DNA of 18,897 bases, from the NCBI GenBank assembly GCA_020444775.1, contig JAGRHX010000017.1:1-18897 (forward strand), given 5' to 3'. The position numbers and the translations under genes were made by a program. Source of the stretch: Gammaproteobacteria bacterium. Its GTDB lineage: Bacteria; Pseudomonadota; Gammaproteobacteria; HK1. A model generated the notes under the pieces. It saw nothing but the letters and a program-made list of their open reading frames with translations. It did no database searches and was not told the DNA's origin. Positions 735 through 15,746 of the stretch are shown here, piece after piece; positions within the stretch are counted from its first letter, which is position 1, and each line of letters opens with the position of its first letter.

Positions 735-1487
735 ATGCGAATATTGCTGATCAACCCCAACGTCACCGAGGCGGTCACCGAGCTGATGCTCGACGAGGCA
801 CGTCGCAGCGCCCGTCCCGGCACCACCTTGGAGGCCGCGACCGCGCGTTTCGGTGTCGAGTACGTGGCGACCCGTATCGAGGCGCAGGTCGCCGGTCACG
901 CGGTGCTCGAGGCGATCGCCGAGCACGGCGATGATGCCGACGGCATCATCATCGCCGCGTTCGGCGATCCGGGTCTGCTCGCCGCGCGCGAGCTGGCGCG
1001 GGTGCCGGTGGTCGGCATCGCCGAGGCGGCCTTGCATGTCGCCTATCTGTGCAGCACGCGATTCTCCATCGTCTGTCTCAACGAGCGGCTCGCACGCTGG
1101 TACGCGGAGTGCGCGGCCGAGCACGATCTGGACCGGCGTCTGGTCAGCGTGCGTCCCATGCGGGCGACGCTGGACGACATCCGCAACGCACGCGGCAGCG
1201 CGGCCGAGGCCCTGGTCAACGAATGCCATGCCGCGGTCGAGGCCGATGGCGCCGAGCTCGTGATCATGGGTGGCGGACCGATCGCCGGGCTGGCGCGCGA
1301 CGTCGAGGACAGGATCCCGGTGCCGGTCATCGACGGTGTGCGTTGCGCGGTGGGGCTGGTCGAGGCACTGGTCAGCATCGCCCCCCGGCAGCCGCGAAGC
1401 GGGACCCTCGCCCGACCGCCGGGTAAGCGCAACATCGGTCTGTCCCCGGCGCTGGCCGCGTTCTTGCACGGCGACCAGGTGTCTTGA
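735..1487 (+). CDS. Asp/Glu/hydantoin racemase family protein, catalytic cysteines absent
   Basis: 250 residues, the usual size for hydantoin or allantoin racemases (HyuE/HpxA type). The start is ATG 735 because the family N-terminus MRILLINPN begins there; upstream in-frame sequence is not family-like. Visible family features are the N-terminal LLINPN strand, the AFGDPGL segment (76-82), PVVGIAEA (91-98) and the C-terminal MGGGPIAGLA segment (178-187). In characterised hydantoin racemases a Cys precedes FGDPGL and a second Cys follows LG near residue 180. Here these positions are Ala75 and Gly180, so the normal two-base racemisation chemistry looks impossible. It lies 30 bases before the hydantoinase start and is probably in one transcript with it. 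A role in hydantoin or N-carbamoyl amino acid metabolism is suggested by context only. The fold assignment is secure; the activity is not. Confidence 0.85.
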   Translation: MRILLINPNVTEAVTELMLDEARRSARPGTTLEAATARFGVEYVATRIEAQVAGHAVLEAIAEHGDDADGIIIAAFGDPGLLAARELARVPVVGIAEAALHVAYLCSTRFSIVCLNERLARWYAECAAEHDLDRRLVSVRPMRATLDDIRNARGSAAEALVNECHAAVEADGAELVIMGGGPIAGLARDVEDRIPVPVIDGVRCAVGLVEALVSIAPRQPRSGTLARPPGKRNIGLSPALAAFLHGDQVS

Positions 1488-1517
1488 GCAACCCCGCTAG
1501 CCGCCATGAGGTACGTC

Positions 1518-2957
1518 ATGCATGCTCACCAGCTCGTCGTGCGAAATGCACGAGTCGCGACCGCGTCCGATTGCTTCGAATGTGACATCGGTATCGATGA
1601 TGGCGAGATAACCGCGTTGGCCCGAGACCTGCCCCCGGGCGAGCGGGAGATCGATGCCGCTGGTCGGGTGGTGACACCGGGCGGGATAGACGGCCATTGC
1701 CATATCGATCAGGTCAGCGGTGATGGCTCGGTATGCGCCGACGACTTCACCTCGGCGACCCGCTCCGCGGCCTGTGGCGGCACCACGACCGTCATGCCCT
1801 TCGCTGTCCAGCAAGCGGGCATGACGCTGCGTGAAGCGGTGAACGACTACCACGCGCGTGCCGAGGGCAAGGCGCTCGTCGACTACAGCTTCCACCTCAT
1901 CTTGAACGATGTGAACGAGGCGGTGCTCGGCCAGGAGCTTCCGGCGCTGATTCACGACGGCTACACCTCGTTCAAGGTCTATATGACCTATGACGATCTG
2001 CGTCTCAATGATACCGAGATACTGGACGTGCTCGCGGTGGCGCGACGCGAGCAGGCCATGGTCATGGTCCACGCCGAGAATGCCGATGCGATCGGCTGGT
2101 TGACCACGCGCCTCGAGCGGGCCGGCATGACGCAGCCGCATCATCACGCGACCTCCAGGCCGATGGCGGTCGAACGCGAGGCCACGCATCGCGCCATCAC
2201 GCTGGCAGAGCTGGTCGATGTGCCGATCCTCATCGTCCACGTCTCCGGTCGCGAGGCCATCGAGCAGATCCGCTGGGCGCAGGGACGGGGTCTCAAGATC
2301 TTCGCCGAGACCTGTCCTCAGTACCTGTTCCTCACCGAGGACGATCTGCGCAAGGATGGTTTCGAGGGCGCGAAATGCATCTGCAGCCCGCCGCCACGTG
2401 ACGCGAAGAACCAGGAGATCGTCTGGGAAGCCTTGTGCAACGGGACCTTCGCGGTGTTCTCGTCCGACCATGCGCCGACCCGCTTCGACGATCCCAAGGG
2501 CAAGAAGCTGCGCGGCGAGACGGCCAGCTTCAAGTGGGTGCCCAATGGCGTACCGGGACTCGAGACCCGTCTGCCGCTGCTGTACTCGCACGGCGTGCTG
2601 ACCGGACGTATCAGCATCAACGAGTTCGTCGCCCTGACCGCGACCAACGTGGCGAAGATGTACGGTCTGGAGCGCAAGGGCCGCATCGCGGTCGGCGCCG
2701 ACGCGGATCTCGTCATCTGGGACGAAGGCACGCCCAGGCTCATCAGCAACCAGATGCTGCATCACGACGTCGACTACACGCCCTATGAAGGCATGCAGGT
2801 CAACGCCTGGCCGGCCTGCACCCTGTCGCGCGGCGTGGTCGTGTGGGACGGTCAGGCACCCGCTGCCCTGCATGAGCACGGTCGCTTCATCGTGGCGGAC
2901 AAGCCCGCTCCGGCACGGCCGCGTGGCCGCTTCGTCAGCGAGCTTCATTTCGACTGA
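1518..2957 (+). CDS. D-hydantoinase / dihydropyrimidinase family cyclic amidohydrolase
   Basis: 479 residues from ATG 1518, chosen over the in-frame ATG 1506 because GAGGT at 1508-1512 lies six bases before it. This is a binuclear-metal amidohydrolase that opens hydantoin or dihydropyrimidine rings to N-carbamoyl amino acids in the cytoplasm. All metal ligands of the family can be placed: His60 and His62 (GHCHID), the Lys that becomes carboxylated, Lys153 (SFKVYMTY), His185 (VHAEN), His241 (HVSG) and Asp317 (SSDHAP). The family segments ADDF...GGTTT, WVPNGVPGLETRLPLL and the C-terminal KGRIAVGADADLVIWD are also present, and the length is normal. It follows the racemase-like gene closely. Allantoinase and phenylhydantoinase are alternatives that sequence alone cannot exclude. 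No N-carbamoyl amino acid amidohydrolase of the HyuC or nitrilase type is in the window. Confidence 0.92.
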   Translation: MHAHQLVVRNARVATASDCFECDIGIDDGEITALARDLPPGEREIDAAGRVVTPGGIDGHCHIDQVSGDGSVCADDFTSATRSAACGGTTTVMPFAVQQAGMTLREAVNDYHARAEGKALVDYSFHLILNDVNEAVLGQELPALIHDGYTSFKVYMTYDDLRLNDTEILDVLAVARREQAMVMVHAENADAIGWLTTRLERAGMTQPHHHATSRPMAVEREATHRAITLAELVDVPILIVHVSGREAIEQIRWAQGRGLKIFAETCPQYLFLTEDDLRKDGFEGAKCICSPPPRDAKNQEIVWEALCNGTFAVFSSDHAPTRFDDPKGKKLRGETASFKWVPNGVPGLETRLPLLYSHGVLTGRISINEFVALTATNVAKMYGLERKGRIAVGADADLVIWDEGTPRLISNQMLHHDVDYTPYEGMQVNAWPACTLSRGVVVWDGQAPAALHEHGRFIVADKPAPARPRGRFVSELHFD

Positions 2958-3058
2958 GGTCTGTTGGGGCGACGGTCGCTGCACCAGATTGGGTAGGCCG
3001 TGGCCAAAGAGGTGCCGGACGCGCGCCATTGTGGTGCGGAGCCCGAACCTTCCCGGTC

Positions 3059-3079
3059 GGCCGAGCGTGTGACTCGGCC
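3059..3079. promoter_or_regulatory. Inverted repeat, possible activator binding site upstream of the sigma-54 promoter
   Basis: GGCCGAG (3059-3065) and CTCGGCC (3073-3079) form a perfect 7-bp inverted repeat with a 7-base spacer. It is centred about 95 bases upstream of the -24 element, roughly -115 to -120 from the expected transcription start, where enhancer-binding activators of sigma-54 usually bind. No T-run follows, so a terminator is less likely. Its role as a binding site is inference. Confidence 0.4.
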
Positions 3080-3159
3080 TCAGGCTTGCGGTGGGTCATC
3101 GTCCCCGCCTCCTGCCACGGCTCCCGGCAGGCGCTGAGCGAAGCGTCCTGTCGAGTCGA

Positions 3160-3175
3160 TGGCACGCTCCTTGCT
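3160..3175 (+). promoter_or_regulatory. Sigma-54 (RpoN) promoter, -24/-12, upstream of dctP
   Basis: TGGCAC (3160-3165), five bases, then TTGCT (3171-3175). This fits the RpoN consensus TGGCAC-N5-TTGCW at every defined position, with the invariant GG and GC at the correct 12-base offset. Transcription would begin near 3186, leaving a leader of about 88 bases to the dctP ATG. Classical C4-dicarboxylate uptake genes are also RpoN-dependent. No activator gene of the NtrC/DctD type is in the window. Confidence 0.7.
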
Positions 3176-3273
3176 CAAGCTCGAACGTCAGTGCTGCGCC
3201 AGCGCCCATCCGTCCGCGGTGGATGCGTATCGCCGGCATATCGAAGCCCACACGCGCACAGGAGAGACGTTCG

Positions 3274-4329
3274 ATGAAGCCAACCCGACTCATGGGGGCC
3301 CTTGCCACCACCTGCACACTCGCAGCCCTGAGTCTTGCCGGGCCCGCGGTCGCGGAGGACATGACCTTCAAGGTCATCGGTCAGCCGGCGGCGACCGGAT
3401 TGATCCAGAAGGAGCTGGAGAGGCCGTTCTTCGAGAGCTTCGAAGAGCGCTCGGGTCTGCCGATCAAGATGGACTACAAGCCGTTGGACCAGCTCGGCGT
3501 CAAGGACACCGAACAGCTACGTCTGATGAAGGCGGGACTGTTCGACGTCGTTTCCCTGCGTGTGTCGCAGAACTCCCGGGACGAGCCGACCCTGCTCGGC
3601 ATGGACCTGGTCGGTCTGAATCCGGACTACGCGACCGGCAGGAAGACCATGGAAGCGTTCTACGACGTGGTCGACCAGCGTCTGCAAGAGCAGTTTCGCG
3701 TCAAGCTGCTCGGCATCTGGGCGTTCGGTCCGCAGATGTTGTTCTGCAAGCCGCCCATCACCCAGCTCTCCGATGTGAAGGGCTTGAAGGTTCGTGTCTA
3801 CGACCAGAACCTCGCAAAGTTCGTCGAATCCATCGGCGGTATTCCTGTGCCACTGTCCTTCACCGAGGTGCATCAGTCGCTCTCGCTGGGCGTGGTCGAC
3901 TGTGCCATCACCGGGCCGAGCTCGGCCAACTCCTCGTCCTGGCCCGAGGTCACGACCCATCAGCTGCCGCTCGGCTTCCAGCTCGCCCTGAATGGCTACG
4001 CGATCACCTTGAAGGCGTGGCAACGGCTGTCGCCCGAGCAGCAGGAGAAGATGCAGGCGGCCTTCGACAAGCTGACCGACGACATCTGGAAGCGTTCGGA
4101 GGAGCTGTGGCTGGACGCGGTGAACTGCAACGTGGACCAGGACCCCTGCACCACAGGTAAGCGCTACAAGCTCGTCAACGTGCCAGTCAAGCCGGCCGAC
4201 ATCGAGGTCGTGCGTGAGGCGCTGGCCAAGATCTCGGTGCCCGTCTGGTCCGAGCTGTGCGACAAGTCCCATCCCGGCTGCTCGAAGAAGTGGATGGAGA
4301 CCGTGGGCCCGGTCGTCGGTCTGAAATAA
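3274..4329 (+). CDS. dctP: TRAP transporter substrate-binding protein, DctP family
   Basis: 351 residues. The start is ATG 3274, with AGGAGAG at 3260-3266 seven bases upstream; a Sec signal peptide follows (Arg5, hydrophobic 8-22, probable cleavage after AVA at residue 27). The periplasmic protein captures an organic anion for the DctQM membrane unit. Family features are GLKVRVYD with Arg174, the position of the Arg that binds the substrate carboxylate in characterised DctP proteins, followed by IPVPLSFTEVHQSLSLGVVD (190-209). Unusually, four cysteines lie near the C-terminus (Cys285, 292, 329, 336) in two spaced pairs; in the periplasm they may form disulfides. The gene is first in dctP-dctQ-dctM behind a sigma-54 promoter. 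The ligand is unknown; a carboxylate such as an N-carbamoyl amino acid or half-amide would fit the neighbours. Confidence 0.92.
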   Translation: MKPTRLMGALATTCTLAALSLAGPAVAEDMTFKVIGQPAATGLIQKELERPFFESFEERSGLPIKMDYKPLDQLGVKDTEQLRLMKAGLFDVVSLRVSQNSRDEPTLLGMDLVGLNPDYATGRKTMEAFYDVVDQRLQEQFRVKLLGIWAFGPQMLFCKPPITQLSDVKGLKVRVYDQNLAKFVESIGGIPVPLSFTEVHQSLSLGVVDCAITGPSSANSSSWPEVTTHQLPLGFQLALNGYAITLKAWQRLSPEQQEKMQAAFDKLTDDIWKRSEELWLDAVNCNVDQDPCTTGKRYKLVNVPVKPADIEVVREALAKISVPVWSELCDKSHPGCSKKWMETVGPVVGLK

Positions 4330-4348
4330 TCGGGAACGGGAGTTGAAC

Positions 4349-4948
4349 GTGCGGCTGCGTAGTTTCATAGACGACGTTCTCAGCATCGTCTTCGGCGTGA
4401 TCTTCATCAGCCTTTCGTGCGTCGTGACGTTGGAGACCATCCTGCGCAAGCTGTTCAATTTCTCCATCCAGGGTGCCGACGAGCTGGGCGGCTATGCGCT
4501 CGCCGTCGGCGCCACCATTGCGTTCGCCACCGCTGTCATCGGACGCAACCACATCCGTGTCGACGTGATCCACGCGCTCCTGCCGCGCCGCCTGCAGGCG
4601 CTCTTGAACTGGACATCCATCGTCCTGCTGGCGGCCTTCTCCAGCCTGATCGCCTGGCTCGCTTTCAAGGTGTTGCTCGACACCATGGACTATCGAAGCG
4701 TCGCGCAGACGCCCTGGGCGACGCCGCTCATCTACCCACAAAGCGCCTGGTTCGCAGGTCTCGCCGTATTCGCGCTGGTCTCGGTGGTGCTCGCGTTGCG
4801 CGCCACCTGGCTGGCGGTCACCGGCCGAGTGGATGCCTTGAACGAGGAGTTCCATCCGAAGAGCGCGAAGGAGGAGCTCGACGACGAGCTTCAGAGCGTG
4901 TCGCAGCGGGGCGTGGACGCCCGGCCGAAGGATGGGGTGCCGACATGA
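4349..4948 (+). CDS. dctQ: TRAP transporter small membrane subunit, DctQ family
   Basis: 199 residues from GTG 4349, preferred because GGGAG at 4338-4342 lies six bases before it; TTG 4343 is an in-frame alternative adding two residues. There are four hydrophobic segments in the normal DctQ pattern (about 10-32, 45-65, 85-107 and 130-150), the GADELGGYALAVGATIAFA segment of the second helix, and a charged cytoplasmic tail. It is the small inner-membrane partner of DctM in a sodium-driven TRAP importer. Its stop overlaps the dctM start (ATGA at 4945-4948), so the two are translationally coupled. Confidence 0.9.
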   Translation: MRLRSFIDDVLSIVFGVIFISLSCVVTLETILRKLFNFSIQGADELGGYALAVGATIAFATAVIGRNHIRVDVIHALLPRRLQALLNWTSIVLLAAFSSLIAWLAFKVLLDTMDYRSVAQTPWATPLIYPQSAWFAGLAVFALVSVVLALRATWLAVTGRVDALNEEFHPKSAKEELDDELQSVSQRGVDARPKDGVPT

Positions 4949-6246
4949 GCGTGCTGGTCATCTTCATCGCCTTCGTGCTGATGCTGGCCATGATGCTGTT
5001 CGGCCTGCCGATCGCGGTCGCGATGGCCGCCGTGGGCATCGTCGGCGGCATGCTGGCCTACGGGATCCCCTTCATGGATTCCATCGCGCCGGTGATCTGG
5101 GGCGTGCAGAACGACAATCTGCTGACCGCCATCCCGCTGTTCGTGCTGATGGGCGAGGTGCTGCTGCGCTCCGGTGTCGCCGACCGCACCTACGGTGCGC
5201 TGGCGGCCTGGCTGGGCTGGCTACCCGGTGGTCTGCTACACACCAACATCGGCTGTTGTGCGATGTTTGCCGCCACTTCGGGATCGTCGGTGGCGACCGC
5301 GGCGACGGTCGGCACCGTTGCCTTGCCCTCACTGCAGGCACGCGGCTATCCGAACAATCTGTCGCTGGGCTCGCTGGCGGCCGGTGGCACGCTGGGGATC
5401 CTGATTCCGCCGTCGGTCAACATGATCGTGTACGGCTCGATCACGGACACGTCGATTGGTCAGCTGTTCATCGCCGGTATCGTGCCCGGTCTGATGCTGA
5501 CGGCGTTGTTCATGCTCTACATCCTGCTGGTCAGCCTGCGCGGCACATCGGCTCCGAAGGAGATCCGTATGCCGTTGCCCGAGCGCGTCCGGCTGTTGCT
5601 CGATCTCATTCCACCACTGGTGATCTTCCTGACCGTGATGGGCAGCTTGTACCTCGGCATCGCGACCACCACCGAGTCGGCCGCGTTGGGTGTGAGCGCC
5701 TCGCTGTTCTTCGCCTGGCGCAACGCGCGGCTGCGCTGGTCGGTGCTCAAGGTCTGCTTCCTGCAGACCGCGCGTACCACCGGCATGATCCTGCTCATCA
5801 TCACATCGGCGTTCGTCCTCAACCTGGCCATGAGTCTGACCGGTGTCGCCGACGCGATGACCCGCTGGGTCGCCTCACTGGGGCTGTCGGCGACGCAGAT
5901 GCTGCTCATCCTCATGCTCTTCTATCTGCTGCTCGGGATGTTCATGGACGTGATGTCCATGTTGGTGGCGACCGTGCCCATCACCTTTCCGTTGGTCACC
6001 GCGCTCGGCGTCGACCCGGTCTGGTACGGGGTGTTCATCGTCTTGATGTGCGAGCTGGGCATGATCACACCGCCGGTCGGGATGAACCTGTTCGTAGTGC
6101 ACGGTATACGCCCCGATAGCGGCGGTATCCACGATGCCATCCGCGGAGGTCTGCCGTATGCGGCCATCATGCTGCTGTTCGCTGTGCTCCTGATCGCCCT
6201 GCCTGAGCTGGTGACCTGGCTGCCGGCGCAGACGCGACCGTATTGA
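4945..6246 (+). CDS. dctM: TRAP transporter large permease subunit, DctM family
   Basis: 433 residues, the standard DctM size, from ATG 4945, which overlaps the dctQ stop. It is almost entirely hydrophobic, with about 12 membrane segments. It carries family segments such as LFGLPIAVAMA near the N-terminus, AIPLFVLMGEVLLRSG, ATSGSSVATAATVGTVALP, GTLGILIPPSVNMIVYG and, near the C-terminus, MITPPVGMNLFVVHGI. It forms the ion-coupled translocation path that takes the ligand delivered by DctP. It ends the TRAP unit; a 228-base gap with its own sigma-54-like element separates it from the ABC genes. Confidence 0.95.
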   Translation: MSVLVIFIAFVLMLAMMLFGLPIAVAMAAVGIVGGMLAYGIPFMDSIAPVIWGVQNDNLLTAIPLFVLMGEVLLRSGVADRTYGALAAWLGWLPGGLLHTNIGCCAMFAATSGSSVATAATVGTVALPSLQARGYPNNLSLGSLAAGGTLGILIPPSVNMIVYGSITDTSIGQLFIAGIVPGLMLTALFMLYILLVSLRGTSAPKEIRMPLPERVRLLLDLIPPLVIFLTVMGSLYLGIATTTESAALGVSASLFFAWRNARLRWSVLKVCFLQTARTTGMILLIITSAFVLNLAMSLTGVADAMTRWVASLGLSATQMLLILMLFYLLLGMFMDVMSMLVATVPITFPLVTALGVDPVWYGVFIVLMCELGMITPPVGMNLFVVHGIRPDSGGIHDAIRGGLPYAAIMLLFAVLLIALPELVTWLPAQTRPY

Positions 6247-6260
6247 CGCCGGCGCGTCTA

Positions 6261-6326
6261 TGCACCGATTGCCGGCAGCGTTGCACCGTATGCGTGCGCG
6301 CGCCGGATGCGACGGCCGATGCACCG
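6261..6326 (+). repeat. Three TGCACCG direct repeats upstream of the ABC genes
   Basis: TGCACCG occurs at 6261-6267, 6282-6288 and 6320-6326, all in the same orientation. The first two are 21 bases apart (two helical turns). They lie 65-130 bases upstream of the -24 element at 6391, a fitting place for activator binding. A related TGCACC occurs at 2980-2985 before the TRAP genes. In GC-rich DNA such heptamers could recur by chance. Confidence 0.3.
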
Positions 6327-6390
6327 CGGCGGGTCTACTGCGAACCGCACCCCGACGGCGTTCACCTACGCTCGCGGTCGACGGATGTCA

Positions 6391-6406
6391 TGGCCTGGAT
6401 GTTGCT
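6391..6406 (+). promoter_or_regulatory. Sigma-54-like promoter upstream of the ABC importer genes
   Basis: TGGCCT (6391-6396), five bases, then TTGCT (6402-6406). The invariant GG and GC have the exact 12-base offset of RpoN promoters; only two bases of the -24 hexamer differ from TGGCAC. Transcription would start near 6417, about 58 bases before ATG 6475. It is weaker than the element at 3160, but its position in the only sizeable gap between the two transporters supports it. Confidence 0.5.
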
Positions 6407-6474
6407 AGCTCACCGATGAGTCCAGATGTTATCGAGTCGTTACCATTGTCACCGCGGGCGAAGTGGAGATGCGT

Positions 6475-7542
6475 ATGAGCAAGAACAGACCGACCAGGGC
6501 CTCGACCACACGGCGCGAGTTCCTCAAGCAAAGCGGCGCCGCGGGTGCGTTGCTCACCGGCTTTCCGTACATCGCGCGCGCCGCGGGTAAGAACCGGCAG
6601 CTGGTGATCGGCTGTGCAGGTGGACACACGGGATGGATGGCCGAGACGGTCGTGCCGGTCTTCGAGAGGAAGTATGACTGCACCCTGCTGTTGGAAGGCA
6701 CCAAGTCGACGGTCAACCTCGAGAAGATGCGTGCCAACAAGGACGCCCCGTATCTCTCGGTGGTGATGATGGACGATCCGGTGCTGATACTCGCCGCGGA
6801 CGAGGGGCTCATCACACCGCTCACGCCACAAATCACCCCGAACATCGCCGCGATCAAGCCCGCGGCGGTGCACCGGGACGGCATGTGGGCCAACTATCAG
6901 CAGCCCTGGTGCGGGATCGCGTACAACACTGATAAGATGTCGGACGGTGTGCAGTCGTGGTCGGCCCTGTGGGATGAGAAGAACAAGGGCAAGGTGATCA
7001 TCCCGTCCCTGCAGAACACCGAGGGCATGTGGGCATTCTTCCTGGCGGCACATCTGGCTACCGGCAAGCCGCTCGCCGAGGCGCAGTACGAGGTCGATGC
7101 GGCTTTCGACAAGATGGCACAGATGAAGCCGAACCTGCTGACCATCTATACCAAGATGCCGCCCAGCTTCAATCTGCTCGAGCAGGGCGAGGCCTGGCTG
7201 CTGGCCGGTGGCTTCTCCTCGTTCGCCATCCCGCGCAAGCTCGACGGTGCGCCGGTCGATCTCGCGGCGCCCAGCGAGGCGATCTGTGCCATGCCCTCGG
7301 GTATCGCGCTGGTCAAGGACGGCCCCGAGCAGGAGCTCGCGCTTGCCTTCGTCAACGAGATGCTCGGTGCCGAGTTCCAGGCGCTGATGACGCCGAAGAC
7401 GTTCTCCATCCCGACCAACACGGCCACGCCCACACCGGCCGGCTTGCCGGACGGTGTGCCGGTGTTCTCACCCGACTGGCAGTTCGTCAGCGAGAATCGC
7501 AGGGCATGGATCGAGCGTTGGGATCGGCTGATGGCGATCTGA
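6475..7542 (+). CDS. ABC transporter substrate-binding protein, PotD-like, Tat-exported
   Basis: 355 residues from ATG 6475, chosen because GGAG at 6465-6468 lies six bases upstream. The N-terminus has a twin-arginine signal, TTRREFLKQS with Arg13-Arg14, a weakly hydrophobic stretch (20-33) and probable cleavage after ARA (residue 36). So it is exported folded through Tat to the periplasm. The remainder resembles extracellular solute-binding proteins of the spermidine/putrescine and iron(III) groups: LVIGCAGGHTGWMAETVVPVFERKY at the start of the mature part, and WCGIAYNTDKM and SALWDEKNKGKVIIP in the middle. It is followed by its ATPase with a TGATG overlap. The ligand is not known; polyamine specificity should not be assumed. 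Confidence 0.88.
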   Translation: MSKNRPTRASTTRREFLKQSGAAGALLTGFPYIARAAGKNRQLVIGCAGGHTGWMAETVVPVFERKYDCTLLLEGTKSTVNLEKMRANKDAPYLSVVMMDDPVLILAADEGLITPLTPQITPNIAAIKPAAVHRDGMWANYQQPWCGIAYNTDKMSDGVQSWSALWDEKNKGKVIIPSLQNTEGMWAFFLAAHLATGKPLAEAQYEVDAAFDKMAQMKPNLLTIYTKMPPSFNLLEQGEAWLLAGGFSSFAIPRKLDGAPVDLAAPSEAICAMPSGIALVKDGPEQELALAFVNEMLGAEFQALMTPKTFSIPTNTATPTPAGLPDGVPVFSPDWQFVSENRRAWIERWDRLMAI

Positions 7543-8696
7543 TGGACGCTGTCGCGCGCCTGGAAGCGGATGACGACGCGCAGAGGCATATGGCGCCGTC
7601 CGGCGCGCGGGCGAGAGCGGTATCGGCCCCATATCTTCGTGTCGACAAGGTCAGCGTGTCGTTCAAAGGCAACCGGGTCATCCAGGATCTGGATCTGGAC
7701 GTCTCACGCGCCGAGCTCGTTTCGCTGCTCGGGCCTTCGGGTTGTGGCAAGACCACGCTGTTGCGGCTGGTCGCGGGACTGCTGCGGGCCGAGCGCGGTC
7801 AGGTGACGCTCGGCGGACGCGGCCTCGATCGTCTGCCCGCGCATCGACGCAACGTCGGCGTGGTCTTCCAGAACTATGCCCTGTTCCCGCATCTGTCGGT
7901 GGCCGACAACGTGGCCTTCGGGCTCAAGGCCCGGCGTACGCCGGCCGCCCAGGTCGCGACCGAGGTGCAGCGCGTGCTCAGCCTGGTGCACATGCAGGAC
8001 TACGCGCAGCGTTCGGTGCGTGCGCTGTCCGGCGGTCAGCAGCAGCGTGTCGCGGTCGCACGCGCGCTGGCCGTGCGGCCGGATCTGCTGCTGCTGGACG
8101 AGCCGTTCTCGGCGCTGGACCGAAAGCTACGCGAGACCATGCAGATCGAGCTGCGTCGACTGCTGCGTGAGCTGGAGATCACGGCGGTGTTCGTGACCCA
8201 CGATCAGGACGAGGCGCTGATCATGTCCGATCGTATCGCGGTGATGAACCAAGGGGTCATCGAGCAGGTGGACCGGCCCGACGTGGTGTACGCGCGGCCG
8301 GCCACCGCCTTCGTGCTCGATTTCGTCGGCACCGCGACCCATCTGCCCGGCACCGTGCAGTCAGGCTTGCCATCGGGCGGCGCGCGTGTCCAGACCCGTC
8401 TGGGCACGGTCACGGTGCCCGATGGCTTCACCGCCGGCAGTCGGGTGCTGGTCGCCGTGCGTCCGGAGCACATCTCGCTGGGGCCGCCGCCCGGTGATGC
8501 CGAGCGTTACAACCAGGTCGAGGTCAGGCTGCGCGAACGCTTGTTCCTCGGCTCACGCACCGTGCTGCATTTCCAGGCAGGTGACGACGAGCGGCTGATG
8601 GTCGAGGCGAGCGGGGCCGGGGGCAGCGCGCTCGAGCCGGGCAGCACATCGCTGTTGCATTGGCCGGTGGACAAGACCTTGAGCTTTGCACAATGA
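7542..8696 (+). CDS. ABC importer ATP-binding protein, PotA-like
   Basis: 384 residues. ATG 7542 overlaps the stop of the binding-protein gene (TGATG), which supports this start although the family core begins only near residue 31. It has Walker A GPSGCGKT (64-71), Q-loop Gln110 (VVFQNYALFPHLSV), signature LSGGQ (162-166), Walker B LLLLDEP (182-188) and H-loop His220 (VFVTHDQDEA). The C-terminal part after about residue 290 is a TOBE-type regulatory domain (LVAVRPEHISLG), typical of the PotA/FbpC/CysA group. It energises the two permeases that follow. Its stop overlaps the next start (ATGA at 8693-8696). Confidence 0.93.
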   Translation: MDAVARLEADDDAQRHMAPSGARARAVSAPYLRVDKVSVSFKGNRVIQDLDLDVSRAELVSLLGPSGCGKTTLLRLVAGLLRAERGQVTLGGRGLDRLPAHRRNVGVVFQNYALFPHLSVADNVAFGLKARRTPAAQVATEVQRVLSLVHMQDYAQRSVRALSGGQQQRVAVARALAVRPDLLLLDEPFSALDRKLRETMQIELRRLLRELEITAVFVTHDQDEALIMSDRIAVMNQGVIEQVDRPDVVYARPATAFVLDFVGTATHLPGTVQSGLPSGGARVQTRLGTVTVPDGFTAGSRVLVAVRPEHISLGPPPGDAERYNQVEVRLRERLFLGSRTVLHFQAGDDERLMVEASGAGGSALEPGSTSLLHWPVDKTLSFAQ

Positions 8697-9565
8697 GCGA
8701 GCTCGCGGCCGGGAGGGCACACGCGCCACGGCGCGCCCGTTGGTCAGCACCCGAACCGATCGCCTGGCTGGCGGCGCCAGGCATCGTCTATCTGCTCGCC
8801 GCGTTTGCCCTGCCACTGGTGCTGCTGCTGCTCACCAGCCTGCGCACCGAGCACGGCTTCGGTCTGCAGCGCTACGCGGTCTTTCTCAGCGACGCGTTCC
8901 ACTGGAAGGTGATTGCCAACACCCTGTCGGCCGCGGCGTGGACGACGCTGTGTTGCCTGCTGCTCGGCTATCCCACGGCCGTCGCGCTCGCCCGCTCCCG
9001 CGGCTACATGCAGACCATCCTGCTCGTCGCCCTGATACTGCCGCTCTCGGTGGGTGTCGTGGTCAAGGCCTTCGCCTGGGCCATCGTGCTGCGCTCCGAT
9101 GGGGTGCTCAACCAGACGCTGCTGGCCATTGGCGCGATCGACGAGCCGCTGCGTCTCATCTTCACCCAGACCGGTCTGGTGTTCGGCGCGACCAACATCT
9201 TCCTGCCGTTCATGGTCTTGCCGATCTATTCGGTGCTCAAGCTCATCGATCCGCGTCTGAGCGCGGCCGGTGCAACCCTGGGCGCAAGCCCGCTGTACCG
9301 GTTCATCCACATAACGCTGCCGATGAGCATGAGCGGGGTGATCGCCGGGATTGCCTTCGTGTTCTCGCTGTCGGTGTCCATGTACGTGATCCCCTCGCTG
9401 CTCATCGGTGAACGATATCCCACGCTGTCCACCTTGACCGCGCGTTCTTATCTGTATCTGCGCGACCATGCGCTCGGCTCGACCTCGGCCTCGATCCTGC
9501 TCATCATCGCGGTCGCGGTGGTGCTCGCGAGCAGCCTGCTCGGGCGTCGCTGGTACAAGCCATGA
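8693..9565 (+). CDS. ABC importer permease, PotB-like
   Basis: 290 residues from ATG 8693, which overlaps the ATPase stop. It has about six membrane segments after a basic N-terminal tail of roughly 20 residues. The cytoplasmic EAA-type loop that contacts the ATPase is visible at about 187-210 (DPRLSAAGATLGASPLYRFI). The segment VVVKAFAWAIVLRSDGVLN is typical of the PotB group. It forms the heterodimeric channel with the next gene, whose ATG overlaps its stop (ATGA at 9562-9565). Confidence 0.92.
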   Translation: MSELAAGRAHAPRRARWSAPEPIAWLAAPGIVYLLAAFALPLVLLLLTSLRTEHGFGLQRYAVFLSDAFHWKVIANTLSAAAWTTLCCLLLGYPTAVALARSRGYMQTILLVALILPLSVGVVVKAFAWAIVLRSDGVLNQTLLAIGAIDEPLRLIFTQTGLVFGATNIFLPFMVLPIYSVLKLIDPRLSAAGATLGASPLYRFIHITLPMSMSGVIAGIAFVFSLSVSMYVIPSLLIGERYPTLSTLTARSYLYLRDHALGSTSASILLIIAVAVVLASSLLGRRWYKP

Positions 9566-10362
9566 CCCGCCTGGAGCAAATCGCGCTCGGACTCACCTGG
9601 GGCATCGCGCTGCTGGTGGTCGTGTACCTGATGTTGCCGCTGGCGGTGACCATCGCGGTCTCCTTCAGCAGCTCGCCGGTCTTCGATCTACCGCCGCCGC
9701 AGTGGTCGCTGCGCTGGTACGCGCAGCTGGCGCGACTGCGCGGGCTCGATGATGCCGTCTGGCTGTCGCTGCAGATCGCGCTCATCTGCACCTTCGTGTC
9801 GTTGCTGCTCGGCACGGCGTGTGCCATCGCGGTCGTGCGTGGCAACCTGCCGTTTCGCGAGAGCGTCACGACCTTCATGGTTTCGCCGTTGATGATGCCG
9901 GGGCTGGTGCTGGGCGTGGCGCTGCTGCAGTTCCTGCGTGAGATGGGGCTTCGGGAGGCTTATCCGAGTCTCGTCATCGGACACATCATCGTCACCTTGC
10001 CTTTTGTCATGCGCGTGGTGGTCGCATCCTTGTCCCTGTTCGACTTCAGCCTGATCGATGCCGCGCGGACCTTGGGCTGCTCGTACCCCAAGGCGCTGTT
10101 CAAGGTGCTGGTGCCGGCGCTGGCACCGGCCTTCATCACCTCCGGGCTCTTTGCATTCCTGGCGTCGATGGACAACTATCCGGTTTCGATATTCTTGACC
10201 GATGCGCGCTACAAGACGCTGCCCATCCAGATGTTGCAGTATCTGGACGAGCGTCCTGACCCGACCATCGCCGCAATCTCCGCCGGTCTCATCGCGCTCA
10301 CCATCGTCGTCCTGCTCATCGGCGACAAGATGGTGGGACTGAAGAAGATCGCCGAGTTCTGA
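9562..10362 (+). CDS. ABC importer permease, PotC-like
   Basis: 266 residues, about six membrane segments. The EAA loop lies at about 165-190 (IDAARTLGCSYPKALFKVLVP), and NYPVSIFL in the segment after it is typical of PotC-type permeases. It is translationally coupled to the preceding permease and completes the binding protein-ATPase-permease-permease set. The amidase gene begins 22 bases after its stop. Confidence 0.92.
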   Translation: MTRLEQIALGLTWGIALLVVVYLMLPLAVTIAVSFSSSPVFDLPPPQWSLRWYAQLARLRGLDDAVWLSLQIALICTFVSLLLGTACAIAVVRGNLPFRESVTTFMVSPLMMPGLVLGVALLQFLREMGLREAYPSLVIGHIIVTLPFVMRVVVASLSLFDFSLIDAARTLGCSYPKALFKVLVPALAPAFITSGLFAFLASMDNYPVSIFLTDARYKTLPIQMLQYLDERPDPTIAAISAGLIALTIVVLLIGDKMVGLKKIAEF

Positions 10363-10384
10363 TCCGACACTGGTTTGAAGGCTC

Positions 10385-11788
10385 ATGTGTGACGTCCCGC
10401 TCTGGCAGCTCGATGCGACGCGTCTACGGACGATGCTGCAGCAGCGCGCCACGACCCCCGAGGTTTTGCTCGAATCGGTGCTGGAGCGTCTCGTCGGCGT
10501 CAATCCGATGCTCAACGCCGTGGTCACGCTCAATCCCAGTGCGAGGGCTGAGGCCGCCGAGAGTGCGCGGCGGATCGCGGCTGGCGCCGCCCGCGGGCCG
10601 CTGGAAGGCATTCCGGTGACGATCAAGGACAATCTGCTCGCCAGAGGCATGCGCGCCACCTGGGGTAGCCGACTGTACGAGCATTTCATACCGACCGACG
10701 ACGAGCTGCCGGTGCAGCGACTTCGCAACGCCGGCGCGGTGGTCATCGGCAAGACCAACGTGCCCGAGTTCACGGTCGAGGGCTATACCAGCAACCCGCT
10801 GTTCGGCACCACCGTCAACCCCTGGAACACCCGCTTGACCCCGGGCGGATCCAGCGGCGGCGCGGTCGCCGCCGTCGCGTCCGGCATCGGGCCCATCGCG
10901 CTGGGCACCGACGGCGGCGGCTCGATTCGCCGACCCGCGGCCTACGGCGGTCTGGTCGGCTTCAAGCCGTCCATCGGCCGTGTGCCCCGCGTCGGTGGCT
11001 TTGCCCGTGTGCTGCTCGACATGGAGGTGGCCGGTCCATTGACGCGCACGGTGGCCGACGCGCGTCTGGCGCTCGAGATCCTGGCCGGGCCGGACCGACG
11101 CGACCAGGCTTCGCAGCGTTTCAGCGAAGGAGTCGAAACCCGAAGTGGGCCACTGCGTATCCTGTACGTGCCACGCTTTGGCGATGCCCCCGTGGATCCC
11201 GAGATCGAGCGCAGTGTCGCGGCGGCGGTGCCGGTATTCGAAGCGCTCGGGCATCGTGTCGAGACCGGCGAGCTACCGTTTTGCATCGATGCCATCAGCC
11301 GCGCCTGGCCGCTCATCGGCCAGGTCGGGATCGCACGTCTGCTCGGCCAACACGATGATGTCGAGGGTCGCATCGGACCCAACGCCAATGCCATGGGGCG
11401 TGCGGGCCTGGCCGTGGCCGCGCCGGACTATCTGTCGATCATCGAGTGCCTGAACGGCTTCAGGGCCCGGGTCGCCGAGGCCTTCTCGGCCTTCGACCTG
11501 ATGTTGACCCCATCGGCCGCCGCCTTGCCCTGGGAAGCCGACAAACCCTTCCCCACGACGATCGCCGGCCGCGACGTGGAACCACGCGGACACGCGGTCT
11601 ACTCCGGCTGGGTCAACGCCTGCGGGCATCCTGCGATCAGTCTGCCGTGCAGTCCCTCGTCGTCCGGGCTGCCGATAGGGCTGCAGCTCATCGGTCGGTT
11701 CGGCGATGACCAGCTGCTGCTGGAGGTGGCGAACGCCTACGAGCAGACCGCGCCATGGTCGCAGCGTTGGCCCGTGCTCGGCGGCTGA
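10385..11788 (+). CDS. Amidase of the amidase-signature family
   Basis: 467 residues from ATG 10385, preceded by GAAGG at 10377-10381. The full Ser-cisSer-Lys triad can be placed: Lys81 (PVTIKDNL), cis-Ser156 (TPGGSSGG) and Ser180 (GTDGGGSIRRP); the 24-residue Ser-Ser distance matches family structures. This is a cytoplasmic hydrolase of a linear amide. Substrates vary widely in the family (carboxamides, allophanate, half-amides), so motifs alone do not tell which. Because it is cotranscribed with ring-opening hydrolases, it is the only candidate in the window for hydrolysing their linear carbamoyl or half-amide products. GatA is an unlikely alternative, since no gatB or gatC is nearby. Confidence 0.9.
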   Translation: MCDVPLWQLDATRLRTMLQQRATTPEVLLESVLERLVGVNPMLNAVVTLNPSARAEAAESARRIAAGAARGPLEGIPVTIKDNLLARGMRATWGSRLYEHFIPTDDELPVQRLRNAGAVVIGKTNVPEFTVEGYTSNPLFGTTVNPWNTRLTPGGSSGGAVAAVASGIGPIALGTDGGGSIRRPAAYGGLVGFKPSIGRVPRVGGFARVLLDMEVAGPLTRTVADARLALEILAGPDRRDQASQRFSEGVETRSGPLRILYVPRFGDAPVDPEIERSVAAAVPVFEALGHRVETGELPFCIDAISRAWPLIGQVGIARLLGQHDDVEGRIGPNANAMGRAGLAVAAPDYLSIIECLNGFRARVAEAFSAFDLMLTPSAAALPWEADKPFPTTIAGRDVEPRGHAVYSGWVNACGHPAISLPCSPSSSGLPIGLQLIGRFGDDQLLLEVANAYEQTAPWSQRWPVLGG

Positions 11789-11800
11789 GCGGATCGAGCG

Positions 11801-11825
11801 CGGCCGCTAGCCGTATTCGCGGCCG
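11801..11825. repeat. Intercistronic inverted repeat
   Basis: CGGCCGC (11801-11807) and GCGGCCG (11819-11825) can pair over seven GC-rich bases with an 11-base loop. They lie in the 64-base gap between the amidase and the cyclic amidohydrolase genes. There is no T-run. An mRNA-stabilising hairpin or partial attenuator is possible. Confidence 0.35.
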
Positions 11826-11852
11826 GCCTCATTGGCGGACTGGAGAGTGAAG

Positions 11853-12746
11853 ATGAGCAGAGACTTTGCAGGCTATGGCGACAATCCGCCGGATATCCGC
11901 TGGCCGGACGGTTCGCGGCTGGCGGTCTCGGTGGTGCTCAACGTCGAGGAGGGCGCCGAGCTGTCATTGCTCCACGGTGATGAGCGCAACGAGGCGGTTC
12001 ACGAGGTCACGCAGCTGGTTAACGGTGCCCCCGACCTGTGTCTGGCCTCGCATTTCGAGTACGGCACCCGGGTCGGCTATCACCGGATCATGTCGGTCAT
12101 CGGCAAGGCCGGTATTCCAATAACCTACAACGCCTGCGCGCGCTCCCTGGTCGGTTTGCCCTGGCTGGCACGCGACGCCATCGCCCGCGGACACGAGATC
12201 TGTTCGCACGGTTGGCGCTGGGAGGCTCACGCCGGCATGGACGAGGCGCACGAGCGGGCCTTGATCGCTCGCGCCCACGCCGAGATCGCGCGGGTAGCGG
12301 GCGTCGCGCCAGTCGGCTGGCACACCAAATCCAGTGCTTCGATCAACACCCGCAGGCTGCTGGTGGAGCACGGCGGCTGGATCTATGACAGCGACGCCTA
12401 CAACGACGATCTGCCGTACTATCTCGAGGTCGCCGGGCAACCGCACCTGGTGGTTCCGTACAGCTTCGATACCAACGACATGCGCTTCTTCGACAGTCAC
12501 GCCTTTGTCAAGGCGGCTGACTTCGCCGAATATGTGATCGATACCTTCGATTGGCTGGCGCGCGAGTCCGTGCATCGGCCAGCGATGCTCTCCATCGGCC
12601 TGCACCTTCGCATCATGGGACGCGCAGGCCGCATTGCCGGCCTTGCCCGGGCGCTCGAGCACATGCAGCAAACCGGTGGCGCCTGGTTCGCGCGCCGCGA
12701 TCAGATCGCCCGCCACTGGCTAGAGGTCTGTCCCCCCGGCGGCTGA
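11853..12746 (+). CDS. PuuE-type allantoinase/imidase-like hydrolase (polysaccharide deacetylase fold)
   Basis: 297 residues from ATG 11853, with GGAG at 11842-11845 seven bases upstream. The whole sequence follows the cofactor-independent allantoinase PuuE pattern: N-terminal RDFAGYGDNPPDIRWP, LNVEEGAE (29-36) in place of the NodB TFDDG motif, GHEICSHGWRWE (113-124) with His119, GGWIYDSDAYNDDLPYY, SFDTNDMRF and C-terminal SIGLHLRIMGRAGRI. Such enzymes open five-membered cyclic ureides; bacterial cyclic-imide hydrolases of about 290 residues are, as I recall, of the same type. It is thus a second ring-opening enzyme, structurally unrelated to the hydantoinase upstream. True polysaccharide deacetylation is unlikely given the altered motif and the absence of a signal peptide. 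It ends 10 bases from the convergent minus-strand operon. Confidence 0.88.
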   Translation: MSRDFAGYGDNPPDIRWPDGSRLAVSVVLNVEEGAELSLLHGDERNEAVHEVTQLVNGAPDLCLASHFEYGTRVGYHRIMSVIGKAGIPITYNACARSLVGLPWLARDAIARGHEICSHGWRWEAHAGMDEAHERALIARAHAEIARVAGVAPVGWHTKSSASINTRRLLVEHGGWIYDSDAYNDDLPYYLEVAGQPHLVVPYSFDTNDMRFFDSHAFVKAADFAEYVIDTFDWLARESVHRPAMLSIGLHLRIMGRAGRIAGLARALEHMQQTGGAWFARRDQIARHWLEVCPPGG

Positions 12747-12756
12747 TGGCGCTCAC

Positions 12757-13539
12757 TCAGCGCGCCGGCACCTCGAAGATCCGCCCCCAGCCCTTGACCC
12801 GGGTCGGATCGCGTCCTGCAAGGGCGAGCATCTTCCAGACCACCGTGCTCACGGTATCGAGCAGCATCGCGGCACGTCCGTGCTCGATCCGCTCCGCCAG
12901 CTGTGCGGCGCGCAGGTTGGTGCACAAGGTGATCACGGCTTCGGCATCGCTGGCATCGAGCAGGGCAGCGCAATCCGCTTCGATGTCCTCGGGGGGGACG
13001 CGTGCGAACTCGTAGTTGGTGCGTATGCCCAGATGCCGCTCGGCGCGGCACTCGATACCGATACGCCGGTAGTTGTCGATGATGCGTGCCTGCACATCAG
13101 CGGTGTACGGTGTATATAGCGCGACCCGACGCACATCGAGGCCGGCCAGCAGCTCGTTGAGGGCGAGCACCGAGGTGGTCGCGGCAATGCCGGTCGCCGT
13201 CTCGATCTGCTCACACAGTGCCAGGTCGCGCTCGAATCCCAGCCATCCGGCCGAGGTGCCGCTCCAGCCGATGACATCCACGTTGGCGTCGGCCAGAAGA
13301 TTCGCTGCCTCGACGATGGTTTCGATCTCGAACTGGCGCTCAGAGCGCTGATCGAGTCCGATCTCGGTCACGCGAAAGCGGCTGAAATGCGCGGAAACGC
13401 CCGGCACGGTTGCGACCAGGGCACTGGTGAGGGGCTCGAGCGCGGTATTCGACGAGGGCGTCAACACGCCCAGACGAATCTGCTTCTCGACCGGTCCGAT
13501 ATTCCTCGAATCGTTCATGCTGACGTTGAGCTGCGACAT
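12757..13539 (-). CDS. Arylmalonate decarboxylase / maleate isomerase-like protein
   Basis: 260 residues, read from ATG 13539, with AGAGG nine bases upstream; an internal Met at residue 8 is an alternative start. The hallmark LGVLTPSSNTALEP (23-36) places it in the maleate cis-trans isomerase/arylmalonate decarboxylase branch of the Asp/Glu racemase superfamily. The other signatures are DVIGWSGTSAGW (88-99) and AVITLCTNLR (201-210). Maleate isomerases carry a Cys in the first of these and another in the second. Here the first is Gly94 and only Cys206 remains, the arrangement seen in arylmalonate decarboxylase. So a decarboxylase, or another one-cysteine reaction, is more likely than isomerisation. 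It begins five bases after the end of the broken racemase gene and is surely cotranscribed with it. The substrate is unknown. Confidence 0.85.
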   Translation of the reverse strand: MSQLNVSMNDSRNIGPVEKQIRLGVLTPSSNTALEPLTSALVATVPGVSAHFSRFRVTEIGLDQRSERQFEIETIVEAANLLADANVDVIGWSGTSAGWLGFERDLALCEQIETATGIAATTSVLALNELLAGLDVRRVALYTPYTADVQARIIDNYRRIGIECRAERHLGIRTNYEFARVPPEDIEADCAALLDASDAEAVITLCTNLRAAQLAERIEHGRAAMLLDTVSTVVWKMLALAGRDPTRVKGWGRIFEVPAR

Positions 13540-13544
13540 GGCCT

Positions 13545-14301
13545 TCAGCCTCTATCCGAGGGTCGATCCGCGAAGAACGCGGCCAACTCGGCTGACAGCC
13601 CGGTGGTGGGCTTCGCGCCGGGACTGCGGTAGCCGCCGCTGCGTGGCTTGCGCCAGCAGGAGGCAGCCAGGCTCTCGGCCATCGAGGCGGCAAAATGCGT
13701 GGGCGCGACCACCGGCACCGGCAGGTGATCCGCAATCCGTGCGGCTACGGTGGCGTAGGCGGCACCACCCAGCACCAGCACGTCCGCGCCATCCTCGTCC
13801 ACCGCGCGCAGACCCATTTCGATGATGCGCCGCTCTGCGGCCTTTTGATCGGCGGCCAGCTCGGTGCCGCTCATCGGCAGGTTGCGCACCGAGACGACGG
13901 CGTCGGTGCCGGTCAGACCATGGCCCACATCGTAGCGGCGCCCGCTCGGGGCTGCCGAGCCCGAGCACGCCGATGCGTCGGCCGATGAGCTGGGCCGCGC
14001 GCAGCCCGGCCTCGGCCAGACCCACCACCGGCACCGGCATCAGCTCCTTGGCGGCGGCCACGAACCCGTGACAGAAGGCGCCGACGATGATCGCATCATA
14101 GCCCTGGTGATGACGGGCCAGCAGGTCGAGCAGCGCATGACCCGCAATCGCGAGCTCGCTGGGCGTCGCGATGAAGGGCACGCCGAATGACGCCGCCAGA
14201 CCGTCCAGCTCGGTATCGGCTCTACACCCGCCGCGCGCTTCCTCGAGCATCAGCCCGAGCATCTGCTCGGAGGTGTTCGGGTTGGCGATCAGGAGTTTCA
14301 T
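13545..14301 (-). pseudogene. Second Asp/Glu/hydantoin racemase family gene, interrupted by a frameshift
   Basis: Start ATG 14301 with GGGGAG six bases upstream; the family N-terminus MKLLIANPNTSEQMLGLMLEEAR is clear and resembles the protein at 735. Homology runs to about RRIGVLGLGSP and then continues in another frame (VGHGLTGTDAVVSVRNLPMSGTE to AAFFADRPSDRG, stop 13545). The change lies within about 13931-13960, in the GC-rich stretch CGGCGCCCGC; removing one base would give a 251-residue protein, the same size as the first racemase. Codon use and family features persist on both sides, so the event is very recent or is a sequence error. The first catalytic Cys position is Ala75 (a Cys sits two residues later, 77) and the second is Gly in VLGGAAYAT. 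Confidence 0.75.
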
Positions 14302-15738: not shown

Positions 15739-15746
15739 ATGACTGA
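15717..15746 (+). other. Nine-codon leader reading frame overlapping the hydrolase start
   Basis: ATG 15717 follows a perfect Shine-Dalgarno GGAGG (15705-15709) at seven bases and encodes MTRPRIADD before TGA 15744-15746. The hydrolase ATG (15739) lies inside this frame and has no ribosome site of its own. This suggests coupled translation, or a small frameshift at the hydrolase N-terminus. Confidence 0.45.

What the first reader, a model, noticed from the sequence alone, without database searches (positions are those of the whole stretch)
735..14301. Candidate RpoN-linked cyclic-amide uptake and degradation island with two unrelated ring-opening enzymes
The sequence shows a hydantoinase (amidohydrolase fold), a PuuE-type hydrolase (deacetylase fold), one amidase-signature amidase, three racemase-fold proteins and two complete importers in a single block. 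The families imply ring opening followed by linear amide hydrolysis. Usual partners are missing: no HyuC or nitrilase-type carbamoylase and no allantoate or ureidoglycolate genes. So neither the classical hydantoin nor the classical allantoin pathway is complete. A cyclic imide route (imidase, half-amidase, dicarboxylate) would fit the PuuE-type protein plus amidase, with the AMDase-like protein acting on the acid product. A previously undescribed combination is possible.
Basis: partly seen in the sequence, partly recalled or inferred. Interest (0 to 1): 0.75.

Follow-up and report, generated by a model that had tools for sequence, protein, structure and literature searches.

The report
Conserved cyclic-amide breakdown gene island
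This stretch of bacterial DNA carries a set of uptake and ring-opening genes, shared with many soil and water bacteria, that probably lets the cell eat a small nitrogen-containing ring compound still to be identified, and one of its so-called racemases has lost the two amino acids that such racemases need.

Summary
Mostly confirmed. The genes named lie at 735-14301: a dihydropyrimidinase-type hydantoinase, a TRAP importer, a PotD/PhnS-like ABC importer, one amidase and one PuuE-type hydrolase. An exact sigma-54 site precedes the TRAP genes. Corrections: the first 'racemase' lacks both catalytic cysteines (as do the 119 closest homologues listed), the third is frame-broken, the second is AMDase/EutA-like with one cysteine. 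The PuuE-type protein is neither PuuE allantoinase (299 bits, cut-off 424.6) nor the metal-binding imidase type; it belongs to a subfamily (loop GWHT[KR]S) that in L039 coexists with a true PuuE. Looser versions recur in Burkholderiales and alphaproteobacteria, with deaminase-like amidohydrolases in about a third of 80 loci and urate-degradation genes in one verified locus. Best reading: a catabolic island for a cyclic ureide or imide of purine/pyrimidine type. Substrate undetermined; the cyclic-imide route is possible, not favoured. New variant of a known kind. Most unusual: two groups of cysteine-free racemase-fold proteins tied to ring-opening enzymes.

The parts
735..1487 (+). racemase-fold protein race1 (PF01177), both catalytic cysteine positions replaced (A75, G180)
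   Evidence: (147 bits), alignment to allantoin racemase 3qvj, (120 of 120 rows A and G, race1 itself included; TM 0.87 to 3qvk)
1506..2957 (+). hydantoinase / dihydropyrimidinase, amidohydrolase fold
   Evidence: NF009941 and TIGR02033 above cut-off; metal-ligand motifs (recalled) kept in 15 of 15 aligned rows, window included
3160..3174 (+). sigma-54 type -24/-12 promoter site TGGCACGCTCCTTGC, exact consensus
   Evidence: similar sites before dctP in L049 and L087, none in L003 or L004
3274..4329 (+). TRAP binding protein DctP
   Evidence: PF03480; NF037995; start
4343..4948 (+). TRAP small permease DctQ
   Evidence: weak (NF007374 1.5e-5, below cut-off); position between dctP and dctM; 52-56% identical copies at the same place in L003, L004, L049
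4945..6246 (+). TRAP large permease DctM
   Evidence: (TIGR00786 above cut-off)
6469..7542 (+). ABC binding protein, PotD/PhnS-like, twin-arginine signal
7542..8696 (+). ABC ATPase with TOBE domain
   Evidence: start
8693..9565 (+). ABC permease 1
   Evidence: start
9562..10362 (+). ABC permease 2
10385..11788 (+). amidase-signature amidase with K81, S156/S157, S180 motif residues
   Evidence: 333 bits
11853..12746 (+). PuuE-type ring-opening hydrolase without the metal ligands, GWHT[KR]S subfamily
12757..13539 (-). AMDase/EutA-like racemase-fold protein, GTS motif and cysteine C206 at the second site
13552..14301 (-). third racemase-fold gene, reading frame broken between about 13922 and 13956

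Best explanation
The block is a catabolic island for a small cyclic ureide or imide, most likely a hydantoin- or dihydropyrimidine-like compound of purine/pyrimidine origin. Uptake is by the TRAP importer, probably RpoN-driven, and the ABC importer (inferred). The zinc hydantoinase opens one ring (catalytic motifs shown, substrate inferred). The PuuE-type enzyme, without metal ligands, opens a second or related ring (fold and subfamily shown, substrate inferred). The amidase hydrolyses the linear amide or ureide (motif residues shown, reaction inferred). The AMDase-like protein acts on the acid product by proton transfer or decarboxylation at its single active-site cysteine (inferred). Race1 is not a two-cysteine racemase; it binds or converts an intermediate by another mechanism (inferred from invariant residues).
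For: Same block (hyd, dctPQM, amidase, PuuE-type, racemase-fold, AMDase-like; ABC genes too in L003 and L004) in L003 Hydrogenophaga MAG, L004 betaproteobacterial MAG and L049 Vreelandella glaciei. Hydantoinase of at least 60% identity lies within 10 kb of the PuuE-type gene in 14 of 80 loci, against about 0.24 expected from 21 such copies in 24 genomes of about 144 Mb (my arithmetic; relatives are not independent). hyd and race1-type genes are within 100 bases in 12 of 33 hyd loci, hyd and the AMDase-like gene within 260 bases in 10 of 33 (L055 and L106 show the same hyd gene). Relatives add TRZ/ATZ-type amidohydrolases (F8 29 of 80, F9 31 of 80) and a guanine/nucleoside-deaminase-like protein (24 of 80). 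L039 carries true PuuE, allantoate amidohydrolase, UraD and a UraH-like gene beside the same PuuE-type and a cysteine-free racemase-fold gene. SsnA and HyuA act on purine-derived ureides in the reductive urate pathway (PMC12507026, passages); F8 and F9 match the SsnA model below its cut-off, and that HyuA is a hydantoinase relative is recalled.
Against: In the window no deaminase or urate gene was found. The two halves also occur apart: hyd, race1 and AMDase-like genes without the PuuE-type gene in the stretches held of L087 and L104 (both genomes have it elsewhere, L048 and L056), and PuuE-type plus ABC without hyd in L085 and L086. Importers vary among relatives (TRAP, PotD-like and NMT1-like ABC, MFS, TctC), so transport says little about substrate. 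I found no member of this PuuE-type subfamily with a tested substrate.
Confidence: 0.5

Rival explanations
1. Cyclic-imide route: the PuuE-type protein is an imidase, the amidase a half-amidase, and the product a dicarboxylate that the TRAP/AMDase-like parts handle.
For: A polysaccharide-deacetylase-fold imidase (HxnM) and an amidase (HxnN) are assigned these steps in Aspergillus nidulans nicotinate breakdown (PMC9304392, passages). A sigma-54 TRAP operon suits a carboxylate (inference).
Against: HxnM and the Pseudomonas putida imidase are related to metal-binding HpPgdA. The window protein scores 273 bits to PuuE and 55 to HpPgdA, with W where the second metal histidine stands and N, E where a family member has its Asp pair. 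The hydantoinase is then unexplained.
Confidence: 0.2
2. Two independent units side by side: race1-hydantoinase-TRAP for one substrate and ABC-amidase-PuuE-type for another.
For: Each unit occurs alone in the stretches held of some relatives (L087, L104 against L085, L086).
Confidence: 0.2
3. An ordinary hydantoin-utilisation cluster (racemase, D-hydantoinase, carbamoylase supplied elsewhere).
For: Hydantoinase above curated cut-offs; racemase-fold gene directly beside it.
Against: Race1 lacks both catalytic cysteines; no carbamoylase found in the window; PuuE-type, amidase and AMDase-like genes unexplained.
Confidence: 0.07
4. The PuuE-type gene is a cell-wall or polysaccharide deacetylase that merely sits near catabolic genes.
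For: Pfam name only (35 bits).
Against: Best sequence and fold match is PuuE allantoinase; metal ligands lost; gene kept near importer and amidase genes.
Confidence: 0.02

Closest known systems
PuuE allantoinase (3cl6, TIGR03212)
   Same: Fold (TM 0.85), 273-bit sequence match, loss of the metal ligands, HG.RW motif
   Different: 299 bits against a cut-off of 424.6; loop GWHTKSS with one extra residue in place of GWYTGR; true PuuE occurs beside the window type in L039
HxnM/HxnN imidase and amidase pair of fungal nicotinate degradation; Pseudomonas putida imidase
   Same: Deacetylase-fold ring opener followed by an amidase (HxnN is modelled on FAAH1 in the paper, and FAAH also matches the window amidase)
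   Different: HxnM belongs with the metal-binding HpPgdA side of the family; no hydantoinase in the steps described (PMC9304392 and PMC3084791, passages)
Allantoin racemase KpAllR (3qvj)
   Same: Fold (TM 0.87), 37% identity over the structural alignment; substrate contact Asn12 kept (N9)
   Different: Cys79 and Cys184 replaced by Ala and Gly; Thr118-Thr119 substrate contacts replaced by Cys-Leu (residue numbering matched by eye)
Arylmalonate decarboxylase / EutA
   Same: G-T-S at the 74-76 site and one cysteine at the 188 site; published AMDase genes also lie beside TRAP or ABC importers (PMC4996985, passages)
   Different: Only 71 and 78 bits (cut-offs 225 and 318); CTNL instead of SCGGL; PS instead of PP
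Reductive urate pathway of E. coli (SsnA, HyuA, YgfK)
   Same: Amidohydrolase plus hydantoinase-type enzyme acting on purine-derived ureides
   Different: No YgfK, YgeX, YgeY or YgeW relative appeared among the window ORFs scanned; the passages seen mention no deacetylase-fold or racemase protein (PMC12507026, passages)

Membership tests
PuuE allantoinase (TIGR03212) | score at or above the curated cut-off of 424.6 bits | tested here: not met
   299.4 bits. Controls: L039 second copy 537.4, L084 434.5; but an annotated PuuE next to ureidoglycolate lyase in L083 also falls short at 369.6
PuuE allantoinase (TIGR03212) | GWYTGR loop seen in true PuuE copies | tested here: not met
   GWHTKS; 78 of 100 aligned rows have GWHTKS or GWHTRS, 7 have GWYTGR, 15 something else (L055 and L106 show one gene twice)
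Metal-binding cyclic imidase type (CIH, HxnM, HpPgdA) | metal ligands D14, H86, H90 | tested here: not met
   H86 kept and H90 is W against 3qbu (placed by the HxxxH spacing); the Asp pair is N and E against 3rxz; the Asp region was not aligned to 3qbu itself
Hydantoin/allantoin racemase | two catalytic cysteines (Cys79, Cys184) | tested here: not met
   Ala75 and Gly180; the same in all 119 other homologues listed
Hydantoin/allantoin racemase | fold | tested here: met
   predicted model, TM 0.87 to 3qvk
Dihydropyrimidinase / D-hydantoinase | curated score and metal-ligand motifs | tested here: met
Dihydropyrimidinase / D-hydantoinase | activity on hydantoin or dihydrouracil | not testable with these tools
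   needs an assay
Arylmalonate decarboxylase | Gly74, Thr75, Ser76, Cys188 | tested here: met
   GTS at 94-96 and C206 (criteria from PMC4996985)
Arylmalonate decarboxylase | Pro15, Gly189 and curated score | tested here: not met
   Ser29 and Thr207 by motif reading; 70.7 bits against 225. Hydrophobic-pocket residues not tested
Maleate isomerase | two active-site cysteines | tested here: not met
   no cysteine at the first site, where GTS stands
Amidase signature family | Lys-Ser-Ser motif residues | tested here: met
   K81, S156/S157, S180 invariant in 6 of 6 aligned rows, window included
Classical hyu hydantoin cluster | N-carbamoyl hydrolase beside the hydantoinase | tested here: not met
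   none among ORFs scanned; contig is cut at both ends
Sigma-54 regulation | -24/-12 site before the operon | tested here: met
   TRAP genes only; no activator gene found in the window

The most novel reading that the evidence does not exclude
The cysteine-free racemase-fold proteins (Ala/Gly group next to the hydantoinase, Val or Ile/Gly group next to the PuuE-type enzyme) are enzymes of a new catalytic kind in this superfamily, for instance taking the step for which no carbamoylase or lyase was found, in an undescribed pathway for an N-heterocycle in which a zinc hydantoinase and a metal-free PuuE-type enzyme act in series.
Probability: 0.25. Interest if true: 0.75.

Novelty: new variant of a known kind. 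Interest (0 to 1): 0.5.

Why it matters
Such genes are annotated as allantoinase, hydantoin racemase or polysaccharide deacetylase, names that the residues do not support here. A defined, conserved module with clear cloning targets would let a missing piece of bacterial nitrogen-ring breakdown be assigned, and would show what a racemase fold does without its two cysteines.

Tried and rejected
Rejected: race1 as a hydantoin racemase (both cysteines absent); the PuuE-type protein as PuuE allantoinase (below cut-off, different loop) or as cell-wall deacetylase; the AMDase-like protein as true AMDase or maleate isomerase. Considered and left open for lack of evidence: a xanthine-amidohydrolase-like purine route and caffeine-derived ureides (literature searches gave nothing decisive), creatinine and barbiturate (ideas only, not searched). 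Searches for a description of the gene combination or of cysteine-free members returned none that seemed to fit (judged from listings except for the six papers of which I read passages: PMC9304392, PMC3084791, PMC3546935, PMC12507026, PMC4996985, PMC12661438), in a library limited to openly licensed papers. The ABC ATPase and GntR counts use loose identity cut-offs and say little alone. The host organism could not be named (no genome held). Structure models confirmed the folds but gave no substrate.
Full report
What is there. The window is a whole 18,897-base contig (one search lists its proteins on a contig of that length), 65.7% G+C. Pfam and NCBIfam scans give, on the + strand: the tail of a hybrid histidine kinase with receiver domain (2-610); race1 (735-1487); hydantoinase (1506-2957); dctP, dctQ, dctM (3274-6246; dctQ only weakly recognised); ABC binding protein, ATPase and two permeases (6469-10362); amidase (10385-11788); PuuE-type hydrolase (11853-12746). 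On the - strand follow an AMDase/EutA-like gene (12757-13539) and a racemase-fold gene (13552-14301), then a haem oxygenase (14619-15281, -), an alpha/beta hydrolase (15733-16680, +), DUF3422 (16736-18304, -) and the end of a BchP-type geranylgeranyl reductase (18535-18897, -; TIGR02023 148 bits over its last 115 positions, a fragment). Both contig ends cut a gene, so missing partners may lie outside.

RpoN. An exact sigma-54 site, TGGCACGCTCCTTGC, lies at 3160-3174, about 100 bases before the dctP start. With two mismatches allowed the window holds 32 sites against 23.1 (sd 5.1) expected, so weak sites mean nothing; exact sites averaged 0.0 in 60 mononucleotide shuffles. Among relatives, near-consensus sites precede dctP in L049 (2 mismatches to the 16-base consensus used), L087 (1) and one of two dctP genes in L063 (2); L003, L004, L060 and the other dctP of L063 have none. 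So the TRAP operon is plausibly RpoN-driven; the whole island is not shown to be.

The racemase-fold genes. Race1 aligns to Klebsiella allantoin racemase with 135.7 bits and no gap around the two active-site positions. A structural paper states that Cys79 and Cys184 are the catalytic pair (PMC12661438, passages). Race1 has Ala75 and Gly180 there. Of 1756 homologues found, the best 120 were listed, race1 itself among them; all 120 have Ala and Gly, but they were ranked by likeness to race1. Invariant or nearly so instead are N7, N9, Y43, R47, E49, H55, D78, E97, R118, W122, E125, R135, R140, D200 and K231. In a tree of 65 racemase-fold rows (race1, 57 matches to race1 from the fetched loci, 7 chosen homologues; the broken third gene left out), 61 lack both cysteines, 3 have both and 1 has the first only. 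The Ala/Gly type (28 rows) and the Val/Gly type (26 rows) each need two changes of label on the tree, against about 21 for shuffled labels; the Ala/Gly side has only modest support (86/82), so I speak of groups, not clades. A model of race1 (mean pLDDT 89.6) matches allantoin racemase 3qvk with TM 0.87. So the fold is kept and the known racemase chemistry is not. The 13552-14301 gene matches homologues in one frame for residues 1-117 and in another for 130-244: a frameshift, real or a sequencing error in a metagenome contig.

The AMDase-like protein. In 22 of 22 aligned rows (window included; the truncated L004 copy not) the second-site cysteine and the GT of the first site are kept; the window reads GTS. 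Published AMDase criteria (PMC4996985, passages) are met at G74, T75, S76 and C188 but not at P15 and G189, and curated scores are far below cut-off. One active-site cysteine suggests single-sided protonation, as in a decarboxylase; this is inference.

The PuuE-type protein. It scores 299 bits to the PuuE model against a cut-off of 424.6, 273 bits to PuuE 3cl6 and 55 to HpPgdA 3qbu. Against 3qbu the second metal histidine is W, and against 3rxz the Asp pair is N and E (read by eye); HpPgdA binds metal and PuuE does not (PMC3084791, passages). Its model (mean pLDDT 77.1, residues 34-63 under 50) matches 3cl6 with TM 0.85. Of 100 aligned rows, 78 read GWHTKS or GWHTRS like the window, 7 read GWYTGR and 15 something else. 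Six of the 7 are second copies in loci that also hold the window type (L029, L036, L039, L043, L044, L047). I scored only the L039 one against the PuuE model: 537 bits. As a caution, an annotated PuuE in L083 scores 369.6, below the cut-off. So at least in L039 the two types are kept side by side.

Conservation. A scan of one genome per species found 342 places encoding a relative; the best 80 were kept. Within 10 kb of the PuuE-type gene lie, of 80 loci (24 of them shorter than 16 kb): amidase of at least 35% identity 37; racemase-fold gene of at least 30% 51, of at least 42% 14; hydantoinase of at least 60% 14; AMDase-like of at least 50% 22; a binding protein together with the second permease 37; GntR regulator of at least 34% 32; TRZ/ATZ-type amidohydrolases F8 (50%) 29 and F9 (40%) 31; guanine/nucleoside-deaminase-like (45%) 24; dctM of at least 60% 3 (family names). 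Hydantoinase of at least 60% identity occurs 21 times in 24 of these genomes (about 144 Mb), so about 0.24 of 80 such stretches would hold one by chance; related genomes are not independent. By matching contig lengths across, hydantoinase and PuuE-type genes lie within 20 kb in 13 of the 24 genomes; 7 of these were known before I chose the 24. L003, L004 and L049 carry the window's set in one block, L049 without the ABC genes in the stretch held. hyd sits within 100 bases of a race1-type gene in 12 of 33 hyd loci and within 260 bases of the AMDase-like gene in 10 of 33 (L055 and L106 show the same gene, and a 34th locus, L099, fell just under the 57% limit). Against a single unit: hyd, race1 and AMDase-like genes occur without the PuuE-type gene in the stretches of L087 and L104, and PuuE-type plus ABC occurs without hyd in L085 and L086.

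Substrate. L039 has a urate-degradation group (PuuE, allantoate amidohydrolase and UraD above cut-off, a UraH-like gene at 78 bits, cut-off 87) a few kilobases from an AtzE-like amidase (345 bits, cut-off 461), the window-type enzyme and a cysteine-free racemase-fold gene. The deaminase-like neighbours and this group point to purine/pyrimidine-type ureides. In the E. coli pathway SsnA and HyuA act on purine-derived ureides (PMC12507026, passages); F8 and F9 match the SsnA model below its cut-off, and HyuA's kinship with hydantoinases is recalled. The imide route has a real precedent: HxnM opens a cyclic imide and HxnN hydrolyses the amide in Aspergillus (PMC9304392, passages), but HxnM belongs to the metal-binding side of the family. 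HpPgdA homologues are reported next to polyamine importers (PMC3084791), which resembles the ABC linkage here. I therefore hold cyclic ureide at 0.5 and cyclic imide at 0.2.

Verdict. Observation confirmed in the main, with three corrections; interpretation partly supported. A conserved catabolic island of undetermined substrate, a new variant of known ring-opening clusters. Its least expected feature is the conserved cysteine-free racemase fold. Openly licensed papers only were searched, so 'undescribed' is limited to those, and mostly to their listings.

Noticed in passing
window 18535-18897 (-): C-terminal end of a BchP-type geranylgeranyl reductase (TIGR02023, 148 bits over positions 273-387; a fragment, so below the full-length cut-off); the host may make bacteriochlorophyll and the island may sit beside photosynthesis genes.
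   Followed up: partly
window 13552-14301 (-): Racemase-fold gene with a frame break between about 13922 and 13956; pseudogene or assembly error.
   Followed up: partly
window 2-610 (+): Tail of a hybrid histidine kinase with a receiver domain directly upstream of the island; best models are EspC, EspA and CckA-like, all far below cut-off.
   Followed up: no
window 14619-15281 (-): Haem oxygenase (PF01126, 159 bits) next to the island; no match in the 56 relatives' loci of 16 kb or more.
   Followed up: no
L007, L008: MAG records titled Bordetella parapertussis and Klebsiella pneumoniae whose PuuE-type gene is 66-68% identical to the window's, like those of environmental Burkholderiales; the titles may be mislabels.
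   Followed up: no
L036:2-2398 (-): A single open frame, cut by the locus edge, joining Hydantoinase_A and the start of Hydantoinase_B (oxoprolinase type), next to an AMDase-like gene and a second, GWYTGR-type PuuE-like gene.
   Followed up: partly
L093:10521-12321 (-): NAD-epimerase and short-chain dehydrogenase frames between the hydantoinase and an NMT1-type ABC importer in Variovorax boronicumulans; role in the pathway unclear.
   Followed up: no
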